Notes: generated by a model not told the origin, from the sequence alone. Counted from the stretch's first letter, positions 10,194 to 39,749 are shown. The stretch: DNA of 64,000 bases from an uncultured Gammaproteobacteria bacterium (GCA_958295485.1 OY282354.1:1674001-1738000), one strand, 5' to 3'. A program made the numbers and translations.

Positions 10194-11159
10194 CTAACGA
10201 CAACTCGCCGGGACAGGGACCTGCCAGAGCCATTGTTGGCCAATCGCCCGACAGTAGGTTTTGAGATGCGCCGTTGAGCCCAACGCTTTCTGCAGCCAGG
10301 GGCGGTGTGGCTGCATCGCCCGTTGCCAGCCTGCTGGCGTGATGCCGAGTTGGTCAATCAAGGGTGGATAAGCGGTCGGGATAGCGCCCCGCTTATCCTC
10401 ACGGAGGCGCTGTCCAGACCAGTCCAGCAATTGCAGATAGTCCTCAAAGTCAAACGGGAGCGTAGCGCTTATATCCGCCTCAGCTGCGGTCTCACGGGGC
10501 TGGAACGGCATTAACTCCGGGGCAGTCTGCGCCCGCCGGCGTTTGACCGAAGTATAATCAGATTGCGTCGGGGTGGAGCTCATCCCGGCCCGGACGGGGT
10601 TCAAGTCCACGTAGGCCAGGCACTGCAACACGGCAGCATCATCTAATAATGCCTGTGACTTGAAGCGGCCCTCCCAAAAGCGCCCCTTGCAGTCATCCTC
10701 GGCATTGGCGGCGCGGGCAATCTTCTCGTTCAGATAGCCCATGAAACGGCTGATGCTCGTCAGGATTTGGCGCATTCGGGCTATCTCTGTATCCACCTGC
10801 TCCAGCTCCGTCGCCGTCAGTACATCCCCCGCCTGAAACCGTTTCAGCAGGGGTCTGAGGGAATACAACTGTTGCCAACGCTCAAGCACCGCTGTTTGAG
10901 AGAGCGAGGCGGCCAACGCCAGGTTGACCCGGAGAACCACGTGGTAGTGATTGGACATGACGGCATAGCCGACGAGGTCGATACAGAAGGCTTGAGACAA
11001 GGCAAGGAGGCGCTGCTCGACCCAGCCGCGACGGTGTTCATAGCTGTTTCCGGTCAGCCGGTCGAACCCGCACAAGAAGGCGCGCCGGACACAGCGGGAG
11101 ATACAGTGATAGTAGGGGGTTTCATCCAGGCAGATTTGTCGGCGTCGTGCAATGGTCAT
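10194..11159 (-). CDS. REP-associated tyrosine transposase (RAYT, Y1/IS200-like)
   Basis: Single-strand DNA transposase of the HUH class. The 321-residue protein has the HUH-type motif in VMSNHYHVVLRVN (His-Tyr-His) and the RAYT blocks GRFWEGRFKSQALLD and YVDLNPVRAGM. The N-terminus begins MTIARRRQICLDETPYYHCI, the usual start of this family. RAYTs are single-copy, host-maintained enzymes linked to REP repeats. Here the gene is bracketed by inverted copies of the GGACACCCATAGATT motif. The frame is intact, so it may be active. Confidence 0.9.
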   Translation of the reverse strand: MTIARRRQICLDETPYYHCISRCVRRAFLCGFDRLTGNSYEHRRGWVEQRLLALSQAFCIDLVGYAVMSNHYHVVLRVNLALAASLSQTAVLERWQQLYSLRPLLKRFQAGDVLTATELEQVDTEIARMRQILTSISRFMGYLNEKIARAANAEDDCKGRFWEGRFKSQALLDDAAVLQCLAYVDLNPVRAGMSSTPTQSDYTSVKRRRAQTAPELMPFQPRETAAEADISATLPFDFEDYLQLLDWSGQRLREDKRGAIPTAYPPLIDQLGITPAGWQRAMQPHRPWLQKALGSTAHLKTYCRAIGQQWLWQVPVPASCR

Positions 11160-11310: not shown

Positions 11311-11439
11311 TTGCAAAAATGTGGTTTTGATTTTCTAAACTTTAAAGATTATTTCCGATATAATTTGTAAGTCTTATGTCAATCCGTGGCTTGGCGCAGT
11401 TTATTTTTATATTTTTGTTTTGAGAATCAGGAACTTATA

Positions 11440-12870
11440 ATGATAATAAGAATTATTCTGGCGATTTTATCTACTTCTTTTTTCCCCGTAATGGTTATTG
11501 CCGCATCCGGGCACGAGGCGGCAACGACAATGGACGCTCCCCTGGAGTTTAATAATGCGATGTTAGTGTCGGCAATCATATTGGCCGTAACCTTCATTGG
11601 GATCTTTACCGAAATGCTGCATGGAATGGAACGGGTGAAAGTCGCCGCAGCGGGCGCCGTAATCATGGTGATTGCCGGGCAGATTTATGGTTTTTACTCG
11701 CCTGAACTTGCGGTAGAGGCCGTTGACTGGAACGTCGTTTTTCTATTAGGCGCCATGATGACCATTATCTCCATCATGATCCCGACTGGGGGATTTGACA
11801 TGCTGGCCTACAAGATTGCGAATTTCAGTAAAGGCCGGCTGTTTTTGCTACTGGCATTAACGGGCACCTGCGTGACGGTTTTATCGCTGTTACTGGATAA
11901 TGTCACTACGGTAGTCATTTTTGGGCCACTTATCATTCTTATCGCCCAGGCACAAAAAGTCAGTCCCATCCCTTATTTATTAGCCGCCGCATTACTGTCT
12001 AATACGGGTGGAGTCGCAACCCTGGTGGGAGACCCTCCCAATTTGATGATAGGTTCGGCGGCGAATATTTCTTTCAATGACTTTTTTATACACATGGGGC
12101 CGCCGGTCCTCATTGCCTTGATAGGCGTGCTTATATTATTAAAATACATTTTCAGGGAGGAACTGGCCGAGACGCCTGCTGACGTATCTGATTATTCGGT
12201 AGAAATTAAAAACAAGAAAGTATGGAATGCCTCTTTAATCATCCTCGGGCTCATGGTGTTTCTTTTCATGTTTCACCATCTACTGCACTGGGAACCCTGG
12301 TTTGTTGCGGCCATTGGCATGGCGGCGCTCAAATTCGCCTCCAAGGATATTGTTATGGAGAGAACTTTTGAAAGGGTGGAGGTCACCTTGCTGGTTTTTT
12401 TCATTGCATTGTTCATGCTGGTCGGCGGGGTTGAACACAGCCAGTTTCTCATGTACCTCGGCCAGTATATCACCCCGTTTGTGCAACATGACTTGCTGGT
12501 GGCGACGATCATATTGATGTGGGTGGCGGCAATCCTGTCCGCCGCCATTGACAATATCCCCTTCACGGCGGCGATTATCCCCATCATTCTGAGCATGGAA
12601 ACGGTGGGAATTAACGTTACCCCATTGTGGTGGGGATTGGCCATAGGCGCCGGCATGGGTGGAAACGGGACCCATATAGGCTCAACTGCAAACGTATTCA
12701 TCGTGACGATTTCAGAACGTTTGGCCCGCGCTGAAAATGATCCGAGCCTGCGTATCACCCCTGGATTATGGTTCAGGAAAGGCCTGCCGGTAATGTTATT
12801 GACCCTGATGTTATCGACGATCTTTTTTATTATTTTCTGGGACTTTTTATCAACGCCGCTTGGCGCATAA
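11440..12870 (+). CDS. NhaD/ArsB-type ion transporter (probable Na+/H+ antiporter)
   Basis: Polytopic inner-membrane transporter of the ion transporter superfamily, 476 residues with about 12 helices. Typical NhaD features are LSLLLDNVTTVVIFGP, NTGGVATLVGDPPNLMIG and AAIDNIPFTAAIIPI; the last two are paired re-entrant repeats. The first 21 residues look like a signal sequence (MIIRIILAILSTSFFPVMVIAA), as seen in some NhaD proteins. ATG 11440 is preceded by CAGGAAC; an upstream start at 11386 is less likely. Expected role: sodium extrusion or pH control. Other anions cannot be excluded. Confidence 0.85.
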   Translation: MIIRIILAILSTSFFPVMVIAASGHEAATTMDAPLEFNNAMLVSAIILAVTFIGIFTEMLHGMERVKVAAAGAVIMVIAGQIYGFYSPELAVEAVDWNVVFLLGAMMTIISIMIPTGGFDMLAYKIANFSKGRLFLLLALTGTCVTVLSLLLDNVTTVVIFGPLIILIAQAQKVSPIPYLLAAALLSNTGGVATLVGDPPNLMIGSAANISFNDFFIHMGPPVLIALIGVLILLKYIFREELAETPADVSDYSVEIKNKKVWNASLIILGLMVFLFMFHHLLHWEPWFVAAIGMAALKFASKDIVMERTFERVEVTLLVFFIALFMLVGGVEHSQFLMYLGQYITPFVQHDLLVATIILMWVAAILSAAIDNIPFTAAIIPIILSMETVGINVTPLWWGLAIGAGMGGNGTHIGSTANVFIVTISERLARAENDPSLRITPGLWFRKGLPVMLLTLMLSTIFFIIFWDFLSTPLGA

Positions 12871-13312: not shown

Positions 13313-14557
13313 ATGACTGATTATGCTGCACAACCATTGCCTGATATCAGATTAACCGATCACCACCTTGATATCCTGGAACAGCTTGATGCGTCGAATG
13401 TTGAATTAGAGAAATGCATAAGCATGCCGCCGGCGGTCTATACCTCCGAGGACTGGTTTGAATTTGAGAAACGAGCGGTCTGGGATAGGGAATGGGTCTG
13501 TGTAGGTCATCACGGCACGATACCGAACCCGGGCGATTACGTGTCCATCACGATGAACGAAGACCCGCTCCTGGTGCAGCGGAAAGATGACGGCGGCGTG
13601 CGGGTCATGTCCGCTGTTTGCCAGCATCGCGGCCACGTGCTGGGCGAAGAAAAAGGCAATGCCAAGGTCTTTACGTGCCCCTTCCACGGCTGGTCCTATG
13701 ATGCAACGGGCAAGCTGGTCAGCGCCCCGGAGATGGATGCCCACGTCAGCTTGAAGGAATTGCAGCAGAAATATTGTCTGGCCACGTTGCGCACAGAGGT
13801 GTGGAACGGGTTTATCTTCGTCAATATGGACGGCAGGGCAAAACCGCTTGCGCCGCGCCTGAAACGCTTAGGCAAGGAAATTGAAAATCATAAGCTCGCG
13901 GAAATGGGGGGTATACCCACGGTGGATTGGGGTCCCAGCCCATGGAACTGGAAGTTTATGCATGAGAATGCCATCGAGCCCCATCATACCTGGTACTTGC
14001 ATAAGGGGCCTCACGATTTTGCCCCTTCCAGGTTGGCAACTTTTGCTGAATGGGACGATTTGGACGATGGCGCCATTTTTCATCCGACCGGGTTCCTGAA
14101 GCTGGATGGCAATTTTACCGCCGCCTTCAGTTGTTTGTTCCCGGTGATCGATGGATTGACTGAAAATGAACGCAAGCGGGTGATGTTTGCCTGCATCTTG
14201 CCCAACCTGTTCTTCGGTTGTGTGCCTGACGGCTGTTTTTATTATTGTATTCTGCCGCAAGGCGCCAACGCCATGACCATCCGGGTTGGTTTCGTCTATC
14301 CCAAATCGACCCTGCGGATGGATAATTTCGATATCATTTTTAAAACCGTCGTAACAGGTCTGGAAACATTGAACGATCAGGATACCGGCGCCAACACCAG
14401 CGTTCACCGGGGCCTTCGGTCACGTTTCGCGCCCCGGGGACGCTATGCGCCGAAAGAGGCGACCTTGCCGCAATTCAATCGCTGGTTGATAACCCGCTAC
14501 AAGGCCTATGCGGGCGAGCTTGAGAGGCAAAAGCAAAAGTCGAAACAGGCCGCTTAG
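13313..14557 (+). CDS. Rieske non-heme iron aromatic oxygenase, alpha subunit
   Basis: Catalytic subunit of a ring-hydroxylating or O-demethylating oxygenase, 414 residues. The Rieske 2Fe-2S domain shows CQHRGH near residue 102 and CPFHGW near residue 122. The catalytic domain has the mononuclear iron motif NAIEPHHTWYLHK around residues 221-233, with two histidines; the distal aspartate or glutamate was not pinpointed. No beta subunit, ferredoxin or reductase gene follows, so electron donors must be encoded elsewhere. It heads a tightly packed run of catabolic genes with a 14-bp gap to the next. The substrate is unknown; the context points to phenolic acids. Confidence 0.9.
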   Translation: MTDYAAQPLPDIRLTDHHLDILEQLDASNVELEKCISMPPAVYTSEDWFEFEKRAVWDREWVCVGHHGTIPNPGDYVSITMNEDPLLVQRKDDGGVRVMSAVCQHRGHVLGEEKGNAKVFTCPFHGWSYDATGKLVSAPEMDAHVSLKELQQKYCLATLRTEVWNGFIFVNMDGRAKPLAPRLKRLGKEIENHKLAEMGGIPTVDWGPSPWNWKFMHENAIEPHHTWYLHKGPHDFAPSRLATFAEWDDLDDGAIFHPTGFLKLDGNFTAAFSCLFPVIDGLTENERKRVMFACILPNLFFGCVPDGCFYYCILPQGANAMTIRVGFVYPKSTLRMDNFDIIFKTVVTGLETLNDQDTGANTSVHRGLRSRFAPRGRYAPKEATLPQFNRWLITRYKAYAGELERQKQKSKQAA

Positions 14558-14571
14558 TTGCACACATTGAC

Positions 14572-15315
14572 ATGAGCGACGAACTCCGGGAAATAAAAGG
14601 ATTGTTGGAGAAACTGGCTGCCAGGTTAGGCCATTTTGAAGATGTAGAAGCGATACAGCGATTGATTGTCACCTATGCGCGGGGCTGTGACCGCGGCAAT
14701 GATCCTGACGTTATCGCCCCCTGTTTTGCCGAAGACAGCGCCTGGGAGTGCAAGGGATTCGGGAAATACCATGGCCGGGAGAAACTGGCGAAAGGACTGC
14801 ACGGCATTGCCGGCGAGAAAATCTGGTGGTCGTTGCACTACATGATTTCCCCCCTCATCGATATCGCCCCTGATGGGCGGACGGCAACGGCATTCTGGTA
14901 CCTGTGGGAGTCGGCGACCGTGCCCAACCCGCACACCGATAAGGCGGAATCACATTGGATCGGCGGCACTTATGATTGCCAGTGCGTGAAACAGGATGGA
15001 CGGTGGCTTTTTCAATCCATGGAATTGAAACTGAACATGGTCAGCCCATACGAAGCGGGGTGGGTGAAGGCCAAATTTCCTGATGGCAGCCGTAATTCAC
15101 CTTACCTGATGAACCTGGAGAAGGGCGAATATCATTGGTGCGCCTGCGGCCGTTCCCGCAACCAACCGTTTTGTGACGGCTCCCACAAGGAAACAAAGCG
15201 CGTGCCGTTGGAATTTAAACTGGAAGAATTCCAGCACGTAGCCCTGTGTGGTTGCAAGTATTCTAAAACCAAACCCTGGTGTGACGGCTCACACTTGAAG
15301 CTCAATCTCGACTGA
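14572..15315 (+). CDS. SnoaL-like domain fused to two CDGSH iron-sulfur domains
   Basis: A 247-residue protein with an unusual architecture. Residues about 1-165 look like a SnoaL/NTF2-type fold, with VEAIQRLIVTYARGCDRGN and a helix-plus-sheet pattern as in small subunits or polyketide-cyclase-like proteins. Residues about 180-245 hold two CDGSH motifs, CACGRSRNQPFCDGSH and CGCKYSKTKPWCDGSH, each able to bind a 2Fe-2S cluster through three cysteines and one histidine. It sits between the Rieske oxygenase and a flavoprotein. A natural guess is that it serves as an oxygenase partner with its own electron-carrier tail. Confidence 0.8.
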   Translation: MSDELREIKGLLEKLAARLGHFEDVEAIQRLIVTYARGCDRGNDPDVIAPCFAEDSAWECKGFGKYHGREKLAKGLHGIAGEKIWWSLHYMISPLIDIAPDGRTATAFWYLWESATVPNPHTDKAESHWIGGTYDCQCVKQDGRWLFQSMELKLNMVSPYEAGWVKAKFPDGSRNSPYLMNLEKGEYHWCACGRSRNQPFCDGSHKETKRVPLEFKLEEFQHVALCGCKYSKTKPWCDGSHLKLNLD

Positions 15316-15325
15316 AACAACAACG

Positions 15326-16984
15326 ATGGTAACGAGAAGAAAGTTTTTAAAATCATCGTTCGCCGCCGCGGGAGTTCCTCTCGTCAGCCAGGCCGGGCAG
15401 GTACTGCCTGATGGCTCATCAACGGGCCCGGATGAGAAATTGCTGCCCGAGACATTGAGTCTGGCTGATTTTAATCAGGCTATCGCAGAATTGCGTCATG
15501 TTGTCGGCAAAAAGTGGGTTTTCACCGATGAAGAGCGTGAGCTGAGGACCTATCGGGACGTCTATGCAACGGTACCGGATGAAGCGCACATGCCATCCGC
15601 CGCGGTGGCGCCGAAAACCGTTGAAGAAATCCAGGCAATCCTGAAAATCGCCCGCAGCTATAAAATTCCGCTTTGGACCATTTCCACCGGCAAGAATTTT
15701 GCCTATGGCGGGCCGGCGCCGTTGAAACCCGGTAATTTCGTCCTCGATTTGAACCGCATGAAGCGCATCATCGAGGTCAATGAAGAGCATGGTTATGCGG
15801 TGGTTGAACCCGGCGTGAGTTATTTTGATTTGTATAACTATTTACAGGAACGCGGCAGCAAATTATGGATAGATCCCGCCGCGCCTGGTTGGGGCGGCGT
15901 ACTGGGCAATATGTCCGAGCACGGCGCCGGTTATACGCCCTACGGCGACCACCTGTTGATGAATTGCGGTATGCAGGTGGTGTTGGCGGACGGCACGGTG
16001 GTCGATACCGGTATGGGGTCCCTGTCGAACGCCGCCACCGCGAGTATGTACAAGTACGGTTGCGGCCCCTGGGTCGAAGGTATGTTCACCCAGTCCAATT
16101 TCGGCGTTATTACGAAAGCGGGCATCTGGCTGATGCCGGAACCGCCGGGCTACCGCCCTTACCTGGTTACCTTTCCCAGGGAGGAGGACCTCTACCAGAT
16201 CACGGAAATCGTCGGCCCCCTGAGACTCAATATGCTTATCCCCAACGCCGCGACCACGGTGGGTCTGATCTGGGAAGCGGCGCCCAGGGTCACAAGAAAG
16301 CAGTATTACAGCGGCAAGGGCCCAATGCCCATGAGCAACCGCCGGAAGATGGCGGACGACCTCGATATCGGCATGTGGAATTTTTATGGCGCTTTATATG
16401 GCCCTGAACCGATCATGGATAACAACTGGAAAGTATTGGAAGAAGCCTTTCGCAGCATCCCCGGCGCCAAGTTCTTCTTCGAAGGCGACCGGCCCGGCGA
16501 CCCGGCCTGGCGCTATCGGGTCAAGCTCATGCGCGGTGTGCCGAATATGACCGAGTTCAGCCTGATGAACTGGGTGGGCAGCGGCGCGCACATCGATTTT
16601 TCGCCGCGCTCCCCGGTCACCGGCGAGGATTCCATGAGACAGTTCACCTTGATCAGGGACCGCGCCCATGAGTACGGGTTCGATTACATCGGCGAGTTCC
16701 TGGTGGGGTGGCGGGAACTGCTGAATATCTTTCAGCTGGTCTTCGACCGCCTGAACGAGGATGAGCGACGCCGCGCCCACGAGTGCTTCGGCGTCATGGT
16801 CAACGATTTCGCCGAGCAGGGCTACGGCGAGTACCGCACCCACCTGGATTTCATGGATGAAGTCGCCGGAACTTACAACTGGAACGACGGGGCGCTGTGG
16901 AAGCTGCACCACCGGCTGAAACATGCGCTGGACCCGGATGGGATTTTATCGCCGGGTAAAAGCGGTATCTGGCCGGCTGCCTGA
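15326..16984 (+). CDS. Tat-exported VAO-family flavoprotein (4-cresol dehydrogenase-like)
   Basis: FAD-dependent oxidoreductase of the vanillyl-alcohol oxidase family, 552 residues. The N-terminus TRRKFLKSSFAAAG is a twin-arginine signal, so the enzyme is likely periplasmic. The FAD-binding half (about residues 85-270) includes PKTVEEIQAILKIARSYKIP, WTISTGKNFAYGG and AVVEPGVSYFDLYNYL. The C-terminal cap carries HIDFSPRSPVTGED. The next gene is a c-type cytochrome, the classic pairing of 4-cresol dehydrogenase and eugenol hydroxylase, which oxidise 4-alkylphenols and pass electrons to cytochrome c. Confidence 0.85.
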   Translation: MVTRRKFLKSSFAAAGVPLVSQAGQVLPDGSSTGPDEKLLPETLSLADFNQAIAELRHVVGKKWVFTDEERELRTYRDVYATVPDEAHMPSAAVAPKTVEEIQAILKIARSYKIPLWTISTGKNFAYGGPAPLKPGNFVLDLNRMKRIIEVNEEHGYAVVEPGVSYFDLYNYLQERGSKLWIDPAAPGWGGVLGNMSEHGAGYTPYGDHLLMNCGMQVVLADGTVVDTGMGSLSNAATASMYKYGCGPWVEGMFTQSNFGVITKAGIWLMPEPPGYRPYLVTFPREEDLYQITEIVGPLRLNMLIPNAATTVGLIWEAAPRVTRKQYYSGKGPMPMSNRRKMADDLDIGMWNFYGALYGPEPIMDNNWKVLEEAFRSIPGAKFFFEGDRPGDPAWRYRVKLMRGVPNMTEFSLMNWVGSGAHIDFSPRSPVTGEDSMRQFTLIRDRAHEYGFDYIGEFLVGWRELLNIFQLVFDRLNEDERRRAHECFGVMVNDFAEQGYGEYRTHLDFMDEVAGTYNWNDGALWKLHHRLKHALDPDGILSPGKSGIWPAA

Positions 16985-16987
16985 GTC

Positions 16988-17377
16988 ATGAAGCATTATT
17001 GCCATACATGCCTTCTGCCTCTACTGCTTTTACTGGCCGGCTGTGGGGATAAGCAGCCTGCCGACGCCGGCAAACCGGCGGGAGTTGTCGAACAGGCAAG
17101 CGTGGTCATGGCTGAAGAAGAGGGCAAGGAATTATTCGAACTGTACTGCATTGCCTGTCATGGCGCCGGCCCGGGCCATCCCGGAACCATGCGCCTGCAG
17201 GAAAGGCTGGGCGAGGAAAAAGCGGCCCTGCTCAACCGGGATGAATTACCGCCAGCGTATATCAAGACAGTAGTCAGGGAGGGTTTCAAATTGATGCCGC
17301 CGTTTCGCCCGACCGAAATTACCGACAGCCAGCTGGATGCGTTGACAGCTTATATAACGGCAGGAAAAGAAAGCTGA
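16988..17377 (+). CDS. c-type cytochrome lipoprotein, likely acceptor for the flavoprotein
   Basis: 129-residue protein with a lipoprotein signal peptide: hydrophobic LLPLLLLLAG followed by Cys near residue 19. One heme-binding motif, CIACH, lies in the segment FELYCIACHGAGPGHPG, and a probable axial methionine lies in KLMPPFRPTEI. It is the size of a single-domain class I cytochrome c. The gene starts 3 bp after the flavoprotein stop and its stop overlaps the UbiD start, so it is certainly co-translated. By analogy with PchC it should accept electrons from the VAO-family enzyme. Confidence 0.9.
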   Translation: MKHYCHTCLLPLLLLLAGCGDKQPADAGKPAGVVEQASVVMAEEEGKELFELYCIACHGAGPGHPGTMRLQERLGEEKAALLNRDELPPAYIKTVVREGFKLMPPFRPTEITDSQLDALTAYITAGKES

Positions 17378-18861
17378 TGGATGCGCAAACCGTCGACTTG
17401 TCCATCGAGGCCCGGGACGTAGCCGGACGTATCCATGATTTAAGGGATTATCTCGATTTATTGGCCGGGCACGGCCAATGTATCACCTGGCCTGAAGCCG
17501 TCATGCCTGAACCCGACATCCGGAAAATCGTCGTTGCGGCAAGTCGCGACGCCATGATGGGGCCGGCAATTCTGTTCGACAAGATCCGTGGTTACCCGGG
17601 TAAAAGACTCGTAGTGGGAGTGCACGGCAGCTTTTCCAATATCGCCTTGCTTCTCGGCCACCAAAAAGGCGCCGGCATCAAGGAATTATTTTACGAAATA
17701 ATCGGTCGTTGGCGTTCCGATTATCCCCTGATAGAAAGGGTGAAACCGGAAGACGCCGCCGTCAACGAGAACAGGGTTGAGTCCGGTATCAACCTGTACA
17801 ATTTGCTGCCGCTTTATCGTATCAATGACATGGATGGCGGATTTTACATCGCCAAGGCAAATATCGTCAGTCGCGACCCCCGGGACCCGGATGATTTCGA
17901 TAAACAAAATGTGGGGATCTACCGAATCCAGGTGCAAGGGCCAGACAGGTTCACCCTGCTGTCCGTGCCGTCCCACGACATGGCCCGGCAAATCCGCATG
18001 GCGGAAGAGGACGATGTCCCACTGAAGATCGCAGTAATGATTGGCAATCACCCGGCCATGGCCATGTTTGCGGCAACCCCCGTCAACTACGATGAATCGG
18101 AATTCGCCTATGCCTCACAGATGATGGGCAGCCCCATTCAATTAACGACATCCGGTAACGGCATGGACGTGCTTGCCGGGTCAGAGATGGTGATAGAAGC
18201 GCAATTAATGAATAACCAGCGTTGCCTGGAAGGGCCCTTCGGCGAATTTCCCGGCAGTTACAGCGGCATTCGACACGTGCCCCTGTTTGAAGTCACAGCC
18301 GTTTCCCACCGTACTGACCCCATCTTTGAAAGCATTTATATCGGCAAGGGCTGGACCGAACACGACACCTTGATCGGGCTGAATACCTGTGCGCCCATTT
18401 ATTCCCAGTTAAAAGAAAATTTTCCTGAGGTGGTCGCGGTCAATGCCTTATACCAGCATGGCCTGACCGGGATCATTTCAGTCAAGAACCGGTTTGCCGG
18501 TTTTGCCAAGTCAGTGGCCATGCGGGCCCTGGGGACTCCTCACGGTTTGATGTACCTGAAAAACCTTATCATGGTGGACGATGACGTCGATCCCTTTGAC
18601 CTCAATCAGGTGATGTGGGCCTTGTCTACCCGTACCCGCGCCAGCGATATTATCGTCATACCGAATATGCCCATGGTGCTCATTGACCCCGCGGCGGAAA
18701 TTCCCGGCAAGGGGCATCGCCTGATCATCGATGCAACCAGTTTCATGCCACCTGATCCAATCGGTGGCGATGCCAAGATCGTATCACCGCCAAGCGGGGA
18801 TGAGATAGACGATCTGGCGAAATATGTTCAACGTCTGCAAAGAGAGGCTGAAAACAAATGA
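17377..18861 (+). CDS. UbiD-family prFMN-dependent decarboxylase
   Basis: Probable non-oxidative (hydroxy)arylic acid decarboxylase or carboxylase, 494 residues, in the expected UbiD size range. The prFMN and metal-binding region is visible at KQNVGIYRIQVQGPDRF, and the catalytic Glu segment reads CLEGPFGEFPGSYSG. The cofactor needs UbiX, encoded by the gene at 29974. The tiny subunit D gene overlaps its end by 4 bp, as in vanillate and 4-hydroxybenzoate decarboxylase operons. Substrate unknown; a phenolic acid formed upstream in the same operon is likely. Confidence 0.9.
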   Translation: MDAQTVDLSIEARDVAGRIHDLRDYLDLLAGHGQCITWPEAVMPEPDIRKIVVAASRDAMMGPAILFDKIRGYPGKRLVVGVHGSFSNIALLLGHQKGAGIKELFYEIIGRWRSDYPLIERVKPEDAAVNENRVESGINLYNLLPLYRINDMDGGFYIAKANIVSRDPRDPDDFDKQNVGIYRIQVQGPDRFTLLSVPSHDMARQIRMAEEDDVPLKIAVMIGNHPAMAMFAATPVNYDESEFAYASQMMGSPIQLTTSGNGMDVLAGSEMVIEAQLMNNQRCLEGPFGEFPGSYSGIRHVPLFEVTAVSHRTDPIFESIYIGKGWTEHDTLIGLNTCAPIYSQLKENFPEVVAVNALYQHGLTGIISVKNRFAGFAKSVAMRALGTPHGLMYLKNLIMVDDDVDPFDLNQVMWALSTRTRASDIIVIPNMPMVLIDPAAEIPGKGHRLIIDATSFMPPDPIGGDAKIVSPPSGDEIDDLAKYVQRLQREAENK

Positions 18862-19088
18862 GTTGTCCCCGTTGCCGCTCATCCGAAGAACATCTTAGAA
18901 CCGAATATCAGGGCAGGGAAGGGGATGAGATCATTTGGACTGTTTATTATTGTAAACGCTGTTCATTTACCTGGCGTGACAGTGAACCGGCTGAATCCAT
19001 AGAGCATGGAAAACGGGAAGCCTCGTTTCGAGCGGACCCGGACCATCCTGAGAAATATAAACAGAATATTCCACCGGCGGCGGAATAG
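18858..19088 (+). CDS. Non-oxidative hydroxyarylic acid decarboxylase small subunit D
   Basis: 76-residue zinc-ribbon-like protein with paired cysteines CPRC near residue 3 and CKRC near residue 32, and the segment WTVYYCKRCSFTWRDSEP, a hallmark of subunit D (VdcD/ShdD-type) proteins. Subunit D accompanies UbiD-type decarboxylases of vanillate, 4-hydroxybenzoate and related acids. Its precise role is unclear. The gene overlaps the decarboxylase stop by ATGA, which strongly supports a functional pair. Confidence 0.88.
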   Translation: MSCPRCRSSEEHLRTEYQGREGDEIIWTVYYCKRCSFTWRDSEPAESIEHGKREASFRADPDHPEKYKQNIPPAAE

Positions 19089-19096
19089 GGGTAGTG

Positions 19097-19128
19097 CAAG
19101 TCCCCTTGATAAGGGGAGTCCTTTAATA
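19097..19128. repeat. Dispersed GC-rich element copy
   Basis: AAGTCCCCTTGATAAGGGGAGTC is a compact copy of the element also found in nuoJ, at the end of rlmB and after the CDGSH gene. Here CCCCTTGATAAGGGG forms a 6-bp stem (CCCCTT/AAGGGG) with a 3-base loop. It lies in the 72-bp gap between the decarboxylase subunit gene and the second flavoprotein. It is not followed by a T-run. Confidence 0.65.
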
Positions 19129-19160
19129 TGACGGCGGCAACGAGTGAAAAATAATTACGA

Positions 19161-20600
19161 ATGTCGAACAAAGTAATAACTGAACTGAAGAATAAACTGG
19201 GCGGCAAAGCCGTACTGGCCGATAAAGGCATTCCTGGCGGAGCTCCCTATGCGCGGTTTGGTAAAACGCCCATCGGCGTGGTCCTGCCCGAAGAAATCGA
19301 ACAGCTGAGAGCGGTATTATCCATCGCCGCGGAAAACAATGTTTCATTATGGGCGCTGCCCAACGCCGCCGGCAATGGCGGCATGGTCAATTCCCCGCCA
19401 GACAAGGACGTTTTGCTCATCGATCAGTCAAGGATGAACAGGATCGTGGAGGTCAATGCCAAGGGCGCCTATGCGTTGGTCGAGCCGGGCGTGAGTTATG
19501 AGCAATTAGCCAGGCGCTTGCAAGAAAATAAAACCGGCCTGTGGGTGGATTGTGACAGGAACGGGCTGAATTCCGTTGCCGGCAGCGTCACTGCCAGGGA
19601 GTTTGGTTATACCGCCTATGGGGATCATATGATGATGCAGTGTGGGATGGAGGTGATGTTGGCCGACGGCAGCCTGGTCAGGTTGGGCATGGGCGCCATG
19701 CCCGGGAGCAACACCTGGCAGCTGGCAAAATATGCCTATGGCCCCTACCTGGACGGTTTGTTTACCCAATCAAACTTTGGGGTCGTGACCAAGATGGGCG
19801 TGTGGTTAATGCCGGCGCCACCCGCTTATCAACCTTTCGCGGTAGCTTTGGAAAGCGCTGGCGATTTGGCCCGGGCCATTGAGATATTGCGTTCATTCAA
19901 GGTGAACGTGATCGTGCCCAATACCGTTGTCATCAGTAATCCCGCGCTGGATGCCAGTCCCTTCGCGGCGCGCGCGGATTATGCCGAAGGAAATAGTGTC
20001 GATATGGACAAGCTCAGGGCGGATTACGGTTTAGGCGCGTGGACCCTGTATGGCGCGCTGTACAACACGCCACCTAATGTGGGGGTGTTGTGGCCGATGG
20101 TAAAGGGCGCGTTTTCAGGCATCAAGACGGCGACAGTCATCGATTTAAAGGAGCAAAACCCTGGCCCGGTCCTGTCCAACAGGGAGAAGATGATGCGCGG
20201 CCAACCATCGACGGAGTTCAATAATATGGAAAACTGGAACGGACAAGGGCGCCTGTACGCCGGTTTTGTTTCTCCGATTAACGGCGAGCAGGTATTGAAG
20301 ATGGATAAGCTGGCCGCTGAGACAGTCCGTAGCAACGGGTTTGATTACCTGACTGAATACGCGGTTGGTTGGCGTTCCGTGATCCAGCGGGTTTATTTGA
20401 CTTATCAACGTTCCGATGAAGCCAGGGCCGTCGCCTGTCTCGACGCCTTGATCGATACCATGGCAAATAAGGGTTTTGGAGTGAGCCACATCAGCACGGG
20501 CCACCTGGACCGGGCATTGGCAAGCTATGATAACGATGGCATGGCCCAATTAAGAGCGAGAATTAAACAGGCCCTGGATCCGGGGAACCTCTTCGCCTGA
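19161..20600 (+). CDS. Second VAO-family flavoprotein, cytosolic form
   Basis: 479-residue paralogue of the Tat-exported flavoprotein upstream. It shares the order ALVEPGVSYEQLARRLQ, GYTAYGDHMMMQCGMEVMLA and GLFTQSNFGVVTKMGVWLMP with that protein but has no signal peptide. The region equivalent to WTISTGKNFAYGG reads WALPNAAGNGGMVNSP, and the PVTGED-type block reads FVSPINGEQ. It could act as a soluble oxidase or dehydrogenase of the VAO family on a related phenol. It follows the decarboxylase genes in the same direction. Confidence 0.85.
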   Translation: MSNKVITELKNKLGGKAVLADKGIPGGAPYARFGKTPIGVVLPEEIEQLRAVLSIAAENNVSLWALPNAAGNGGMVNSPPDKDVLLIDQSRMNRIVEVNAKGAYALVEPGVSYEQLARRLQENKTGLWVDCDRNGLNSVAGSVTAREFGYTAYGDHMMMQCGMEVMLADGSLVRLGMGAMPGSNTWQLAKYAYGPYLDGLFTQSNFGVVTKMGVWLMPAPPAYQPFAVALESAGDLARAIEILRSFKVNVIVPNTVVISNPALDASPFAARADYAEGNSVDMDKLRADYGLGAWTLYGALYNTPPNVGVLWPMVKGAFSGIKTATVIDLKEQNPGPVLSNREKMMRGQPSTEFNNMENWNGQGRLYAGFVSPINGEQVLKMDKLAAETVRSNGFDYLTEYAVGWRSVIQRVYLTYQRSDEARAVACLDALIDTMANKGFGVSHISTGHLDRALASYDNDGMAQLRARIKQALDPGNLFA

Positions 20601-20684
20601 TTATCAGGGAGCGCTACGTGTCCGCTGAAAAACCAAAACAGCGCAAACCCTCGCCCCCCCATCGGCATCAACCGGAGATAAACA

Positions 20685-21518
20685 ATGAAAGCGCGGGATT
20701 TACCTGGAGCGGAAAGTAAATACGTCGATGTTAACGGCGTCAATACACATTATTATGAAGCGGGATCCGGCGAGGCATTGGTACTCTTGCACGGTGGTGG
20801 CGCCGGCGCAGACAGTTTTGGTAATTGGCGTGGTTGCATGTCAACCTTCGCCGAGCGCTATCATGTCCATGCCATCGATATGATCGGGTTTGGTTTTACC
20901 GATAAACCCGACCCACAGAACTATTCCTATACCCAACAGGCCCGAAATGAGCACGTCATCGCCACAATCGAAGCGTTAGGGCTGTCCCCAGTGAATTTAA
21001 TCGGTAATTCCATGGGTGGCAGTACTTCCATGGGGGTTGCCGCAGAGCGCCCTGAGCTGGTGAACAAGCTGATACTGATGGGCAGCGCCGGCGTGCGTGC
21101 GCCGATTACCGATGAATTAAAATCAATAATGAATTATGACTATACGATAGAGGGCATGGTGAAGATCATCCGGGGATTGACCCACCCGGACTTTGAATTC
21201 GATAATGAGCTTGTCGATTATCGTCATGGATTATCGATACAGGAAGATACCAAACAGGCATATAACGCCATTATGGGCTGGATACGGGGTCGGGGGGGTC
21301 TGTATTATGAGGAGGAGTACATGTCCCGCATCACCCATAATACCCTGGTTGTGAACGGCAAATCGGATTTGGTCGTGCCGTTGAGCAGCGCCTTCAAACT
21401 TTTGGAGTTAATCAGGAATTCCCGGGGTTATATCATTCCCGGCTGTGGCCACTGGGCCATGATCGAAAAAGCGGAAGAGTTTGCTGATGTATCGCTGTCT
21501 TTCCTGAAGAGACTTTAA
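20685..21518 (+). CDS. Alpha/beta hydrolase, meta-cleavage-product hydrolase type
   Basis: 277-residue serine hydrolase. The oxyanion-hole motif reads LLHGGGAGADSFGNWRG, the nucleophile elbow GNSMGG (Ser near residue 110), the acid is in VVNGKSDLVVP and the histidine in GCGHWAMIEKAEEF. The HGGGAGA start and the overall pattern match C-C hydrolases that cleave ring-fission products of catechols (DmpD/BphD/HsaD group). No ring-cleavage dioxygenase gene is in the window, so the pathway link is inferred. The start ATG is preceded by CCGGAGATAAACA. Confidence 0.85.
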   Translation: MKARDLPGAESKYVDVNGVNTHYYEAGSGEALVLLHGGGAGADSFGNWRGCMSTFAERYHVHAIDMIGFGFTDKPDPQNYSYTQQARNEHVIATIEALGLSPVNLIGNSMGGSTSMGVAAERPELVNKLILMGSAGVRAPITDELKSIMNYDYTIEGMVKIIRGLTHPDFEFDNELVDYRHGLSIQEDTKQAYNAIMGWIRGRGGLYYEEEYMSRITHNTLVVNGKSDLVVPLSSAFKLLELIRNSRGYIIPGCGHWAMIEKAEEFADVSLSFLKRL

Positions 21519-25268: not shown

Positions 25269-27404
25269 ATGTCTGCGCAATTAAAAGAAACTTACTATGG
25301 CGGCTGTCCGCACGATTGTCCCGATACCTGCTCGATGATTTTCGAAGTCGAAGACGGCAAACTTACCGGTGTCCGCGGCAACAAGGAACATCCCATGACC
25401 CGGGGTGGTTTGTGTGTGAAGCTCAAGGATTATGAAAAGCGCCATTATCATCCCGATCGTCTCCTCTATCCCTTGCGCCGAACAGGGCCCAAGGGCAGCA
25501 AACAATTTGAACGCATTGCCTGGGATGACGCGCTGGACGAAGTCGTCGCTCGTTGGAAGGCGATAATCGATGAATATGGTACCCAGGCGATCGTTCCGTA
25601 CAGTTACCTGGGTCACCAGGGACTGGTGCATGGCCTGAACGGTGGCGATGCCTTTTTTAACAAACTTGGCGCCACGGTTTGTGAGCGTACCTTTTGTGGC
25701 GAAGGGTCGGCAACGGCCTGGGTGTTGACCAATGGGCCCACCAGCGGCGTCGACCCGGAAAGTTTTGCTTATTCCAAGTACATTATTCTATGGGGTTGCA
25801 ACAGCGTCAGCACCAACCTGCATGCCTGGCATTTTGTCGAAGATGCCAGGAAGAAGGGGGCCAAGGTGATAGTGATTGATCCCTACAGGTCCCGCACCGC
25901 CAAACTGGCTGACTGGCATATAAGGGTTCGTCCCGGCACCGACGGCGCCTTGGCCATGGCAATGATCAATACCATTATCGAGGAAGGCCTGGTTGACCAG
26001 GATTACGTAGATAACTATACCGTCGGCTTTAAGGAACTGGCGGACAGGGCCAAGACGCGCACGCCGGAATGGGCGGCGGAGGTCACCGGCGCCAGTGCAG
26101 ATGATATACGCACCCTTGCCCGTGAATATGCCACAACTAATCCGGCTGCCATTCGTATTGGCGTTGCAGTGGAGAGGAACTGGGGTGGCGGTCAGGCCAT
26201 ACGCGCCATCAGTTGTCTGCCGTCCCTGACCGGCGCCTGGCGCGGGGTGGGAGGCGGTATTTATCAAATGACCTTCTGGGAACATCCCTACAAGCTGGAC
26301 GTGATATCGCGACCGGACTTTATTCCCCATGGAACGCGGGTCATCAATAACCTGCAGATCGGCCGGGCGCTTACCGGTGAAATTCCATTGGACCCGCCCA
26401 TCATGTCCATGATGTGCTGGAACTCCAACCCGGTTACCCAGGCGCCCGAAGGTGACAAGATCATCAAGGGCCTGGAACGGGAAGACCTGTTCATGGTATC
26501 AGCCGAGCACTTTATCTCTGACACGGCTGCCTACGCAGATATTGTTCTGCCGGCTGCCATGGGCGCGGAAATGGAAGATATCATCCTGTCCTGGGGTCAT
26601 AACTATTTAACCTATAATACCAAGTGTACCGACCTGCCGGGAGAAGTCTTGTCGAATAATGAGATCTTCAATCGATTGGCCGCACGCATGGGTTTTGAAG
26701 AAGACCGCTTTAAATGGTCTGATGCCGAATGTCTGGAAAACTTCGTTGACTGGGAGTCACCGGCCTGTGAAGGAATCGACTTGGACTACCTGCGTGAAGA
26801 GGGTTATGCCCGCATAAAGATTGGCAACCCGGATGAGCGGGCGCCGCATAAAGAAGGCAACTTCCCCACGCCATCGGGCAAGTGTGAATTTCTCTCGGAA
26901 ACCGCGTCTAACGGTAATTTTGTTATAGAGCCGTTCCGGCAGATGTATCAGGGCATGCAGCCTGGCAACAGTGAACCATTGGATACTTTGCCTGATTATG
27001 TGCCGTCAAAGGAAATGCCGGAGACCAACCCGGATTTGGCGAAGAAGTACCCCTTGAATATTATCGCTCCCAAGAGTCATGGTTTCCTGAATTCCTGTTA
27101 TGCCAACATGGATCACAAGATTAAGGGACAAGGTGAACAATTCGTCATGATCAGTGAAGATGACGCCAGCGCGCGTGGCATCAAGCATGGTGACCAGGTC
27201 CGGATTTTTAATGATCGCGGCGCCTTTGAGGTCTTGGCCCACGTGAGTGATGATGTCAATTCCGGCCTTTTAGTAAGCACGCTGGGTTACTGGCGGCAAT
27301 TGAACAAGGGTACATGCAATGTCGTATCATCCGCAGAATTTTCCGACATGGGTCATGCCCCCAGGGTATTTGACAGCCTGGTGCAAGTCGAGCTGGCGGC
27401 TTAA
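25269..27404 (+). CDS. Molybdopterin oxidoreductase, DMSO reductase family
   Basis: 711-residue catalytic subunit with bis-MGD cofactor. The N-terminal 4Fe-4S site reads CPHDCPDTCS (spacing C-x3-C-x3-C) with the fourth cysteine in RGGLCVKLKDYEKR. Later blocks include YIILWGCNSVSTNLHAWHF, KVIVIDPYRSRTAKLADWHI and the C-terminal DQVRIFNDRGAFEVLAHVSD. There is no Tat signal, so it is probably cytoplasmic. No ferredoxin-like or membrane subunit gene adjoins it. The substrate is unknown; its place between aromatic genes and ubiX suggests a hydroxylase or transhydroxylase role, but that is a guess. Confidence 0.85.
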   Translation: MSAQLKETYYGGCPHDCPDTCSMIFEVEDGKLTGVRGNKEHPMTRGGLCVKLKDYEKRHYHPDRLLYPLRRTGPKGSKQFERIAWDDALDEVVARWKAIIDEYGTQAIVPYSYLGHQGLVHGLNGGDAFFNKLGATVCERTFCGEGSATAWVLTNGPTSGVDPESFAYSKYIILWGCNSVSTNLHAWHFVEDARKKGAKVIVIDPYRSRTAKLADWHIRVRPGTDGALAMAMINTIIEEGLVDQDYVDNYTVGFKELADRAKTRTPEWAAEVTGASADDIRTLAREYATTNPAAIRIGVAVERNWGGGQAIRAISCLPSLTGAWRGVGGGIYQMTFWEHPYKLDVISRPDFIPHGTRVINNLQIGRALTGEIPLDPPIMSMMCWNSNPVTQAPEGDKIIKGLEREDLFMVSAEHFISDTAAYADIVLPAAMGAEMEDIILSWGHNYLTYNTKCTDLPGEVLSNNEIFNRLAARMGFEEDRFKWSDAECLENFVDWESPACEGIDLDYLREEGYARIKIGNPDERAPHKEGNFPTPSGKCEFLSETASNGNFVIEPFRQMYQGMQPGNSEPLDTLPDYVPSKEMPETNPDLAKKYPLNIIAPKSHGFLNSCYANMDHKIKGQGEQFVMISEDDASARGIKHGDQVRIFNDRGAFEVLAHVSDDVNSGLLVSTLGYWRQLNKGTCNVVSSAEFSDMGHAPRVFDSLVQVELAA

Positions 27405-27473: not shown

Positions 27474-27949
27474 TTAGCTTTTTACGCCTTCCCAGCGTTT
27501 TACCATGCCTGAGTCAATATCGAATAAATCCAAAGCCCGGCCGATGGAAGCGTTAACCATATCATCGACGGTCTGCGGTCGATTATAAAATGCGGGAATG
27601 GGCGGGGCGATGATCGCCCCCAAAACTGAGGCATCATAGAGTAGTTTACAATGCCCGATATGCAGTGGCGTCTCACGGGGCATAATCACCAACCGCCGGC
27701 GTTCCTTCAGGACCACATCGGCAGCCCTCACCAGCAGGTTGTCGGCATAGGAGTTGGCAATCGCAGAGAGTGTCCGCATGGAACAGGGGGCGACAATCAT
27801 GCCGTCGGTCTTGAAAGAACCACTTGAGATATTCGCGGCAATATCTTTGATATTATGCACCACGTCGGCTTTTGCCTCGATGTCCGTCAGGGCATGTTCC
27901 GTTTCGATACCGACATTGAGCTTGGCCGCATTGGTCATGACCAGGTGGG
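27474..27949 (-). pseudogene. 5'-truncated copy of ubiX
   Basis: Encodes the C-terminal 154 or so residues of UbiX, from VMTNAAKLNVGIETEHAL to WEGVKS and TAA, but lacks the first 35-36 residues, which carry the flavin-binding GMSGASGLIYG segment. It is 99.4 percent identical (three mismatches in 471 bp) to the intact gene at 29974-30546. Homology ends sharply at 27949, where unrelated sequence begins. This end probably keeps the original downstream context, next to the molybdopterin enzyme gene. Confidence 0.9.
27479..27949. repeat. Left 471-bp direct repeat (ubiX sequence)
   Basis: Left arm of a direct repeat pair; the right arm is 29982-30452, with an exact offset of 2503 bp and no indels. 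By eye the three differences are at about 27642 (T against C), 27765 (A against C) and 27774 (C against T). The arms bracket a foreign-looking two-gene module. Confidence 0.95.
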
Positions 27950-28038
27950 TTCACCGGCAAACCGGCGTGAACGAGGCCGCTGTCAACCTGCCTGATGACT
28001 ACGATGCAGCAGATAAATTTCTTGATGGAGACAGTTGA
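27950..28038 (+). pseudogene. C-terminal remnant of an unknown gene upstream of the ATPase
   Basis: Immediately right of the ubiX repeat boundary, 28 codons read TGVNEAAVNLPDDYDAADK and on to a TGA that overlaps the ATPase start as TGATG. The acidic, natural-looking peptide and the coupled stop/start suggest the tail of a real gene whose body was lost when the segment joined the chromosome. I cannot name the family from so short a piece. It could also be chance reading frame. Confidence 0.5.
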
Positions 28039-29297
28039 TGATCACGTTGATTGAGGCGCTGAATTACCGCTGTTTGCGGTATGTGCAAAGACCCTTGAAA
28101 CCGTTTCATGTCCTGGTCGGACCTAATGCGTCGGGTAAGACAACTTTTTTGGACGTCATTGGTTTTTTGAGTGACTTGGTATCCGAGGGGTTGGACGCGG
28201 CCCTCTCGAAGCGCGCCTCGAATCCTCAGGAACTCCTCTTTCGGCGGCAAGGCGACAGGCTGGAATTGGCGCTTGAGGCGCGGGTCCCCGATGCGCTTCG
28301 CAGATTGACGTCAAAACCAGAGTTGGACACGGCAAGATACGAGGTGGCTATCGGCTTTGACGAAACACAGCGCCAGTTCGAGTTCAAGGCCGAGAGACTG
28401 CTATTGAAGAAGGCCAAGGTTTTGGAACCGCCGCAATACTCATTCTTCCCCATGCCTTGCAGCGCCCCGGATTCGTTGCTAACTCGTATACGTCAACGAG
28501 ACAACAAGGTCGTGGTCAACAAAGTGTTGGGCGGGAATGATAACTTCTACAGCGAAACCTACGGTCGTTCGGGAAAGGGCTGGGCGCCCTCGTTCAGGTT
28601 AGGCCCTCAAAAATCCGCCTTGGGCAACCTTCCGGCAGACGAAAAATCGCTTCCCGTGGCTACATGGTTTCGAGGCTATCTGACGATCGGAGTTCAGAAG
28701 TTCATGCTTAACAGCCCCGCGATCAAGCGCCCCAGTCCTCCAACCAGGGTTGCGGGCTTTTTGCCCGATGGGTCGAACCTTCCTTGGGTCGTCGCTCGTC
28801 TGCGGCAGGGAGACCGAGAACGGTACGACGCCTGGGTCGCGCACCTGCATACGGCGCTTCCCGACTTGGTGGACATTGCAACTTTCGAGCGCCCTGAGGA
28901 TAAGCACTGTTACATGATCTATGAGTATGCCGGTGGGTTGAAGGTACCGTCTTGGCTGGTTTCCGATGGCACACTCCGGCTTACGGCGCTTACCCTGCCC
29001 GCGTACCTGGCCAATCTTCAAGGCATCTACTTGGTAGAGGAACCGGAGAACGGGATTCACCCTGGGGCCGTGTCAACCGTGTATGATTCTCTCTCCTCGG
29101 TGTATGGGGCCCAGGTATTGTTGGCGACCCATTCGCCGGTGGTACTGAATGCAGCCGACAAGAATAATGTGCTCTGCTTTGCGAAAAGTGATGACGGTTC
29201 GACCGATATTGTTCTTGGTTCCGAACACCCCGCGCTTCAACAATGGCAGGGCGAAGCCGATCTTGGCATATTGCTCGCATCGGGGGTTTTGGGATGA
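28038..29297 (+). CDS. AAA-type (AAA_15/21, OLD/RecF-like) ATPase, likely defence-related
   Basis: 419-residue ATPase. Walker A is VGPNASGKTT near residue 32; the signature and Walker B region are SDGTLRLTALTLPAYLANL and IYLVEEPENGIHPGA; the switch histidine is in LLATHSPVVLN. This is the SMC/RecF-like architecture seen in many two-gene anti-phage systems where the ATPase senses and a nuclease-like partner acts. ATG 28038 is preceded by GGAGACAG. The stop overlaps the next gene by ATGA. Its codon choice (for example many CTC, TCG and AAG) differs from neighbouring genes. Confidence 0.85.
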   Translation: MITLIEALNYRCLRYVQRPLKPFHVLVGPNASGKTTFLDVIGFLSDLVSEGLDAALSKRASNPQELLFRRQGDRLELALEARVPDALRRLTSKPELDTARYEVAIGFDETQRQFEFKAERLLLKKAKVLEPPQYSFFPMPCSAPDSLLTRIRQRDNKVVVNKVLGGNDNFYSETYGRSGKGWAPSFRLGPQKSALGNLPADEKSLPVATWFRGYLTIGVQKFMLNSPAIKRPSPPTRVAGFLPDGSNLPWVVARLRQGDRERYDAWVAHLHTALPDLVDIATFERPEDKHCYMIYEYAGGLKVPSWLVSDGTLRLTALTLPAYLANLQGIYLVEEPENGIHPGAVSTVYDSLSSVYGAQVLLATHSPVVLNAADKNNVLCFAKSDDGSTDIVLGSEHPALQQWQGEADLGILLASGVLG

Positions 29298-29923: not shown

Positions 29924-29973
29924 GGAATGGCGCTTGGGGAATTTCGCGAGCGGTATAATGCTGTTTTTTTGTC

Positions 29974-37253: not shown

Positions 37254-37280
37254 AGCCATTATGCCCGCACCCCCGGCTGG

Positions 37281-38231: not shown

Positions 38232-38256
38232 GCTTATACTTTAAGCAAGAATAATC

Positions 38257-39594: not shown

Positions 39595-39749
39595 ACCCCT
39601 TAGGGATGATAACGAGACACGGCAGGCCTTGGCGGCGGAAGCGCCCGATGCCAGAATTTCCTGGCCCGTATTTCTCACCAGGCCACCGGGTCACTGCCGG
39701 GTTGTGGAAGTGAGCGCTATTTATATGAACTTTACGAATTAATTCAAGA

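What the first reader, a model, noticed from the sequence alone, without database searches (positions are those of the whole stretch)
13313..21518. Dense catabolic operon joining oxygenase, flavoproteins, cytochrome and UbiD
Overlaps and tiny gaps tie a Rieske oxygenase, SnoaL-CDGSH protein, VAO-family enzyme with cytochrome c, UbiD-type decarboxylase and subunit D; a second VAO paralogue and a C-C hydrolase follow. Combined, they could oxidise a 4-alkyl- or 4-hydroxyaryl compound in the periplasm, decarboxylate the acid with prFMN and open the product. I do not know a described pathway with this exact set.
Basis: partly seen in the sequence, partly recalled or inferred. Interest (0 to 1): 0.65.

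Follow-up and report, generated by a model that had tools for sequence, protein, structure and literature searches.

The report
Phenol-breakdown operon with unusual iron-sulfur partner
A marine bacterium carries a compact gene set that oxidises 4-hydroxy-aromatic compounds in the periplasm and strips off their acid group inside the cell; most of it is a recurring module already present on the Novosphingobium plasmid pNL1, but a Rieske oxygenase and a rare two-domain iron-sulfur protein of unknown role have been joined to it.

Summary
The operon is real and the order is conserved: Rieske oxygenase, SnoaL/tandem-CDGSH protein, flavoprotein VAO1, cytochrome c, UbiD-type VdcC, VdcD and second flavoprotein VAO2 recur, all or in part, in four same-genus genomes, in another genus of the family and, rearranged, in two more distant MAGs. 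The C-C hydrolase is not part of the conserved unit. The core (VAO1, cytochrome c, VdcC, VdcD, VAO2, UbiX) is not new: it lies on Novosphingobium plasmid pNL1, Paraburkholderia pBN2 and in Sphingomonadaceae and other gammaproteobacteria, usually with an aldehyde dehydrogenase. VAO1 keeps the 4-phenol residues, the FAD-linking His and the Ala-Pro flavin pair of dehydrogenases; VAO2 has lost nearly all of them and looks like a non-catalytic alpha-prime subunit. So: periplasmic flavocytochrome oxidation of a 4-hydroxybenzyl/vanillyl-type compound, then prFMN decarboxylation to a phenol. The variable part is the Rieske oxygenase plus a protein joining a SnoaL domain (Asp-His dyad) to two complete NEET [2Fe-2S] motifs, an architecture recovered at only 11 loci in a scan of about 85,000 species genomes. 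By-product: flavoproteins of this family that lie beside a cytochrome c carry their own Tat signal or sit beside a small Tat-signal protein, which suggests that protein is an export escort.

The parts
13313..14557 (+). Rieske oxygenase alpha subunit (ROX): Rieske Cys103/His105/Cys122/His125; mononuclear Fe ligands His225, His230, Asp357; Glu222 where most Rieske oxygenases have the bridging Asp
   Evidence: Pfam Rieske and Ring_hydroxyl_A; alignment of 11 homologues; CntA alignment
14572..15315 (+). SnoaL (NTF2-like) domain with invariant Asp40 and His89, fused to two complete CDGSH/NEET motifs (residues 190-205 and 226-241); no signal peptide seen
   Evidence: Pfam SnoaL_4 and zf-CDGSH; alignment A1; motif check; fold search
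15326..16984 (+). VAO1: catalytic 4-phenol flavoprotein with own Tat signal (TRRKFLKSSF); His for FAD linkage, Ala-Pro at flavin N5, Tyr-Arg phenolate pair, Tyr91 equivalent
   Evidence: Closest PDB: vanillyl-alcohol dehydrogenase 8S7P, 656 bits; residues
16988..17377 (+). c-type cytochrome with lipobox (LLAGC): electron acceptor of VAO1
   Evidence: Pfam Cytochrome_CBB3; adjacent in most VAO1 loci
17377..18861 (+). VdcC, UbiD-family prFMN hydroxyarylate decarboxylase
   Evidence: NCBIfam VdcC 660.7 bits, cut-off 650; closest PDB 7AE4 phenolic acid decarboxylase
18858..19088 (+). VdcD, small zinc-ribbon subunit D
   Evidence: NCBIfam VdcD above cut-off; overlaps VdcC by 4 bases
19161..20600 (+). 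VAO2: degenerate second flavoprotein (probable alpha-prime subunit), no signal peptide
   Evidence: Lacks the Tyr-Arg pair, active-site Tyr and N5 pair; FAD-linking His absent here; sits with VAO1 and cytochrome in clusters without UbiD
20685..21518 (+). meta-cleavage-product hydrolase (CarC/DxnB2-like); local neighbour, not conserved with the operon
   Evidence: PDB 1J1I 277 bits, 4LXG 255 bits; absent in L020, L021, L023, L033
29974..30546 (-). UbiX flavin prenyltransferase, intact copy (190 aa), supplier of prFMN
   Evidence: Pfam Flavoprotein 148 bits; UbiX next to VAO2 in L021
27474..27938 (-). Truncated UbiX duplicate without its first 36 residues, 99% identical DNA to the intact copy
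11386..12870 (+). CitMHS/ArsB-type transporter kept just upstream of the operon in the genus; possible uptake or efflux
25269..27404 (+). DMSO-reductase-family molybdoenzyme, kept near UbiX and VAO2 in L021; role unknown
   Evidence: a 51% homologue lies near VAO1-cytc-VAO2 in L116

Best explanation
It is a catabolic operon for 4-hydroxyaryl compounds with an oxidisable para side chain (4-hydroxybenzyl, vanillyl or 4-alkylphenol type). Inferred order: (1) VAO1, exported by Tat with VAO2 as a non-catalytic partner, withdraws a hydride to give a p-quinone methide that takes up water, and passes electrons to the lipoprotein cytochrome c, giving a 4-hydroxybenzaldehyde. (2) An aldehyde dehydrogenase encoded elsewhere makes the 4-hydroxybenzoate. 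(3) VdcC/VdcD with UbiX-made prFMN removes CO2, leaving phenol or guaiacol. (4) Ring hydroxylation or O-demethylation and ring cleavage follow; the Rieske oxygenase probably acts here, with the SnoaL/tandem-NEET protein as its dedicated partner (electron carrier, second enzyme, or both). Steps 1 and 3 rest on residues and family membership; steps 2 and 4 are inference. Nothing was shown biochemically.
For: VAO1 is closest to vanillyl-alcohol dehydrogenase, a reported enzyme on vanillyl alcohol, 4-hydroxybenzyl alcohol and eugenol that does not use O2 (PMC7617285), and keeps Tyr-Arg, Tyr91, His and the Ala-Pro pair. Cytochrome c is adjacent and VAO1 has a Tat signal. VdcC and VdcD pass curated cut-offs; UbiX is nearby. 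The same core recurs with an aldehyde dehydrogenase, the enzyme this route needs, on pNL1, pBN2 and in further loci. HpaB-type hydroxylases and a BphC-type dioxygenase adjoin the operon in L034 and L035, an HpaB follows it in L023, and this genome has HpaB beside catechol-type dioxygenases. ROX lies within 2 kb of SnoaL/CDGSH at 10 of 11 loci found; the eleventh is cut by its contig end.
Against: No aldehyde dehydrogenase lies in this operon; the best in the genome are about 35% identical to the pNL1 one. Vanillyl-alcohol dehydrogenase has Asp at the first N5 position where VAO1 has Ala, so substrate preference may differ. No characterised Rieske oxygenase is close (best about E 4e-32, Rieske half only). 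No reductase is encoded beside it. VAO2 could have another substrate rather than none. Co-transcription is inferred from spacing.
Confidence: 0.7

Rival explanations
1. The Rieske-bearing clusters are the guaiacyl version: vanillyl-type compounds go to vanillate, VdcCD gives guaiacol, and ROX is a guaiacol O-demethylase giving catechol, cleaved by the catechol-type dioxygenases elsewhere in the genome.
For: VdcC family includes vanillate decarboxylase; VAO1 is nearest to vanillyl-alcohol dehydrogenase; catechol-type dioxygenases are present; Rieske guaiacol O-demethylases are described (cited in PMC12607616).
Against: ROX was not compared with a known guaiacol O-demethylase (no sequence was available here); ROX carries Glu222 like carnitine monooxygenase; HpaB and BphC in L034/L035 would also handle a plain phenol.
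Confidence: 0.3
2. Plain p-cresol or 4-hydroxybenzyl route to phenol, with ROX and SnoaL/CDGSH serving a different, merely co-regulated substrate.
For: The core works without ROX on pNL1, pBN2 and in Sphingomonadaceae; ROX plus SnoaL/CDGSH also occurs as a separate pair without the core (L037, L038, L039).
Against: ROX and SnoaL/CDGSH lie with the core in several lineages, and L034/L035 keep the grouping after rearrangement; vanillyl-alcohol dehydrogenase is inactive on p-cresol (PMC7617285).
Confidence: 0.3
3. ROX and SnoaL/CDGSH act first: ROX oxygenates a precursor and the SnoaL domain (Asp-His dyad as in LinA and bile-acid 7-alpha-dehydratase) eliminates water, creating the 4-hydroxyaryl group that VAO1 and VdcC need.
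For: Invariant Asp40/His89 match the dyad spacing of LinA and BaiE as I recall it; top fold matches are LdpA, LinA and dehydratases.
Against: No Rieske dioxygenase plus SnoaL dehydratase pathway known to me; VAO1 is periplasmic, so the product would have to leave the cytoplasm again.
Confidence: 0.12
4. Chance neighbourhood of unrelated catabolic genes.
For: The hydrolase, amidase and DUF3179 genes nearby are indeed not conserved with the operon.
Against: Order kept across genera and overlapping reading frames.
Confidence: 0.02

Closest known systems
pNL1 cluster of Novosphingobium aromaticivorans (UbiX, Tat protein, VAO1, ALDH, VdcC, VdcD, VAO2, cyt c)
   Same: VAO1 58%, VdcC 70%, VAO2 42%, VdcD 40%, cytochrome c 45%, UbiX 48% identical, in one run
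   Different: No Rieske/SnoaL-CDGSH pair beside it; has an aldehyde dehydrogenase and a separate Tat-signal protein
Vanillyl-alcohol dehydrogenase of Marinicaulis flavus (8S7P, PMC7617285)
   Same: Same fold family, FAD-linking His, Pro at flavin N5, Tyr-Arg substrate pair
   Different: VAO1 has Ala instead of Asp150, a Tat signal, and operon partners
p-Cresol methylhydroxylase (PchF/PchC); two-flavoprotein form of Geobacter metallireducens
   Same: Flavoprotein plus cytochrome c, Ala-Pro at N5; Geobacter also has two flavoprotein isoforms, one without FAD (Geobacter detail recalled, not tested)
   Different: His rather than Tyr as likely FAD link; coupled to VdcCD
BpfAB of Sphingobium yanoikuyae DN12 (bisphenol F, PMC12724174)
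   Same: Flavoprotein plus cytochrome of this family, oxygen taken from water
   Different: Followed by a Baeyer-Villiger enzyme and hydrolase, not by decarboxylation
LdpA, LinA and bile-acid 7-alpha-dehydratase (SnoaL/NTF2 fold)
   Same: Fold of residues about 18-160; Asp-His pair at matching offset
   Different: None carries CDGSH domains or is paired with a Rieske oxygenase, as far as I know

Membership tests
VAO/PCMH 4-phenol oxidoreductases (VAO1) | Tyr-Arg phenolate pair and active-site Tyr | tested here: met
   YR at VAD 468/469 and Tyr at 91 in VAO1 and homologues
VAD clade | FAD-linking His, Asp150, Pro151 | tested here: not met
   His and Pro present, Asp replaced by Ala; works like, but is not filed as, VAD
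Oxidase-type 4-phenol enzymes (VAO, EUGO, EPO) | Asp/Glu-Leu pair at flavin N5 | tested here: not met
   Ala-Pro
VAO/PCMH 4-phenol oxidoreductases (VAO2) | Tyr-Arg pair and active-site Tyr | tested here: not met
   Ser-His and Gly in the window copy; Tyr-Arg pair absent in all ten VAO2 aligned
VdcC/VdcD hydroxyarylate decarboxylase | Curated model cut-offs for C and D, VdcC and VdcD adjacent | tested here: met
   660.7 vs 650 bits; 58.9 vs 30 bits
VdcC/VdcD hydroxyarylate decarboxylase | prFMN-dependent decarboxylation of vanillate or 4-hydroxybenzoate | not testable with these tools
   needs enzyme assay
Rieske non-heme oxygenase alpha subunit | CxH..CxxH Rieske motif, 2-His-1-carboxylate iron site | tested here: met
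Rieske non-heme oxygenase alpha subunit | dedicated reductase or ferredoxin in the operon | tested here: not met
   none among the operon genes
CDGSH/NEET protein | CxCx2(S/T)x3PxCDG(S/A/T)H | tested here: met
   two complete motifs
Rieske oxygenase beta subunit (for the SnoaL domain) | NTF2 fold closest to RO beta subunits | tested here: inconclusive
   none among the top rows shown, but absence there proves nothing; model pLDDT only 62

The most novel reading that the evidence does not exclude
The SnoaL/tandem-NEET protein is a new type of Rieske oxygenase partner: its two NEET [2Fe-2S] clusters feed electrons to the oxygenase in place of a ferredoxin, while its SnoaL domain acts on the oxygenase product, so that oxygenation and elimination are coupled in one complex.
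Probability: 0.2. Interest if true: 0.75.

Novelty: new variant of a known kind. Interest (0 to 1): 0.45.

Why it matters
It ties a widespread but unassigned plasmid-borne module (VAO1, degenerate VAO2, cytochrome c, VdcCD, UbiX) to a testable reaction order, points to a possible NEET-type electron partner for a Rieske oxygenase, and yields a simple rule for how 4-phenol flavocytochromes reach the periplasm that suggests a role for a common gene of unknown function in these operons. The carriers include a MAG from the sponge Mycale hentscheli.

Tried and rejected
Literature searches for CDGSH with Rieske or SnoaL, and for PchX with Tat, gave nothing relevant; no paper assigning a substrate to the pNL1-type module was found. 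Promoter and terminator scans did not exceed shuffles. I considered ring cleavage by the CarC-like hydrolase as part of the pathway and dropped it (absent from the other copies). I considered the SnoaL domain as a Rieske beta subunit: unsupported, not excluded. I considered that ROX replaces the aldehyde dehydrogenase, because the ROX/SnoaL-CDGSH loci examined lack one while most ROX-lacking core clusters have it; L113/L114 have an aldehyde dehydrogenase and unrelated Rieske genes together, L115 has unrelated Rieske genes and no aldehyde dehydrogenase, and the lineages are few, so this stays a hint. My first Tat scan seemed to give exceptions (L113, L115, L116); a closer look found the Tat protein in each.

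Full report
Observation. The eight genes are present at the stated coordinates with gaps of 14, 10, 3, -1, -4, 72 and 84 bases. Pfam and NCBIfam give Rieske + Ring_hydroxyl_A; SnoaL_4 + two CDGSH; FAD_binding_4 + FAD-oxidase_C; cytochrome c; UbiD (VdcC, 660.7 bits against a cut-off of 650); VdcD (58.9 against 30); FAD_binding_4; alpha/beta hydrolase. UbiX occurs twice near by: an intact copy at 29974-30546 and a truncated one at 27474-27938, 99% identical in DNA over 476 bases.

Conservation. In same-genus genomes the run CitMHS - hypothetical - ROX - SnoaL/CDGSH - VAO1 - cytc - VdcC - VdcD - VAO2 is kept (L020, L021, L023; L022 ends in VdcC at its contig end), with 86-89% identity for ROX, SnoaL/CDGSH, VAO1 and VdcC in the complete copies; in L021 UbiX and the molybdoenzyme follow directly. 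A different genus of the family (L033) has it with a second Rieske gene and a Tat-signal protein inserted. Two more distant MAGs (L034, Centralia soil; L035, labelled Deltaproteobacteria) have ROX, SnoaL/CDGSH, Tat protein, VAO1, cytc and VAO2 with VdcCD divergent, and HpaB and BphC-type genes next to VdcD. The hydrolase is in none of them. The scan of about 85,000 species genomes gave 11 SnoaL/CDGSH loci; ten have a Rieske gene within 2 kb and the eleventh is cut off 97 bases upstream by the contig end.

Core module. A protein search of plasmids led to pNL1 (L045), pBN2 (L046) and a Sphingobium fuliginis plasmid (L047), which hold VAO1, VAO2, VdcC, VdcD, cytc, UbiX and an aldehyde dehydrogenase but no SnoaL/CDGSH and no close ROX. 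A survey of Sphingomonadaceae and Gammaproteobacteria added the core in L105-L109 and L112, related clusters with VdcCD in L113-L115, and VAO1-cytc-VAO2 without UbiD in L110, L111 and L116. The last set suggests that VAO1, VAO2 and the cytochrome form one enzyme.

Flavoproteins. Numbering by vanillyl-alcohol dehydrogenase (VAD, 8S7P; residues in PMC7617285), VAO1 has His387, Tyr468-Arg469, Tyr91 and Ala-Pro at 150/151. Oxidases have Asp/Glu-Leu there and dehydrogenases Pro or Ile after a small residue, so VAO1 reads as a dehydrogenase. Its His plus Ala-Pro combination is in none of the seven characterised enzymes tabulated in that paper. VAO2 has Arg-Asn, Arg, Ser-His and Gly at those places; none of the ten VAO2 sequences aligned keeps the Tyr-Arg pair, while a His at 387 survives in two (L023, L035). 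I therefore read VAO2 as a non-catalytic partner, comparable to the FAD-free alpha-prime subunit that I recall for Geobacter PCMH (not tested here).

Export. VAO1 of this genus starts with a Tat signal (MVTRRKFLKSS). In L033-L035, pNL1, pBN2 and the S. fuliginis plasmid VAO1 has none, and a small protein with a Tat signal is encoded next to it. Further loci of this flavoprotein family fit: own Tat signal in L071, L080, L110, L111; Tat-signal neighbour in L055/L079, L056/L078, L058/L081, L059/L077, L061/L082, L066, L068, L069, L070, L072-L075, L105-L109, L112, L113, L115, L116. The two loci with the oxidase Asp-Leu pair, L067 and L076, have neither a cytochrome nor a Tat protein; L117, a lone variant with Leu-Lys instead of Tyr-Arg, also has neither. 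L114 was not resolved. This was a hand-made survey with a simple motif, not a formal statistic. It suggests that the small protein is a Tat escort and that this genus replaced it by a signal on VAO1.

Rieske unit. ROX has all Rieske and iron ligands; the bridging position is Glu222 in ROX and its close relatives, as in carnitine monooxygenase, and Asp in the paralogues paired with the second type of SnoaL/CDGSH protein. The SnoaL domain model is only moderately confident (pLDDT 62); top Foldseek matches are LdpA, LinA and dehydratases, and a VIA-align comparison gives Z 15-18 for many NTF2-fold chains, so the fold is clear but not the function. Asp40 and His89 are invariant in ten homologues and lie where the LinA and BaiE dyads fall by alignment offset (dyad residues recalled). 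Both NEET motifs are complete.

Downstream. This genome has HpaB-type hydroxylases beside three catechol-type intradiol dioxygenases at C1:1.08 Mb and, at C1:47-52 kb, another Rieske oxygenase with an extradiol-type dioxygenase and hydrolase. Aldehyde dehydrogenases exist but are only about 35% identical to the pNL1 one.

Verdict. The operon is ordinary in kind (phenolic side-chain oxidation plus prFMN decarboxylation) and known in outline from pNL1; the Rieske/SnoaL-NEET addition and the degenerate flavoprotein make it a new variant. Substrate and ROX reaction remain inferred. One related MAG comes from the sponge Mycale hentscheli (MH-Pat-SR, PMC7157528); sponge origin of the others was not verified.

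Noticed in passing
window 15326-16984; L033, L034, L035, L045, L069, L073, L074, L113, L115, L116 and others: 4-phenol flavoproteins next to a cytochrome c have either their own Tat signal or a small Tat-signal protein in the operon, never both in the loci seen; Asp-Leu oxidases have neither. Suggests a Tat escort role for that protein.
   Followed up: partly
window 27474-30546: A 476-base duplication of ubiX flanks an insertion carrying an AAA_21 ATPase (28035-29297; PADLOC HEC-01A/AriA/mad3-like) and a mad4-like protein (29243-29923): a candidate defence pair.
   Followed up: partly
window 34986-41144: Selenium cluster: SelD fused to a pyridine-nucleotide oxidoreductase, a glycosyltransferase (SenB-like position), selenoneine synthase SenA (478.9 bits, cut-off 420) and SelA.
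   Followed up: no
L037, L038, L039: A second SnoaL/CDGSH + Rieske pair (55-57% and about 40% identical), without the flavoprotein core, in relatives; bridging residue is Asp there and the second NEET motif reads CDATH or CDASH.
   Followed up: partly
L113, L114, L115: Other gammaproteobacteria have VAO1-cytc-VdcCD clusters with unrelated Rieske genes (about 30% identity) and a second VAO copy; in L113 and L115 that copy has Leu-Lys for the Tyr-Arg pair.
   Followed up: no
window 10194-11159: Weak match to REP-associated tyrosine transposase (37.9 bits, below cut-off 80).
   Followed up: no
window 54493-54717: A separate CDGSH-only gene in the same window (49% identical to the fused CDGSH part).
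   Followed up: no
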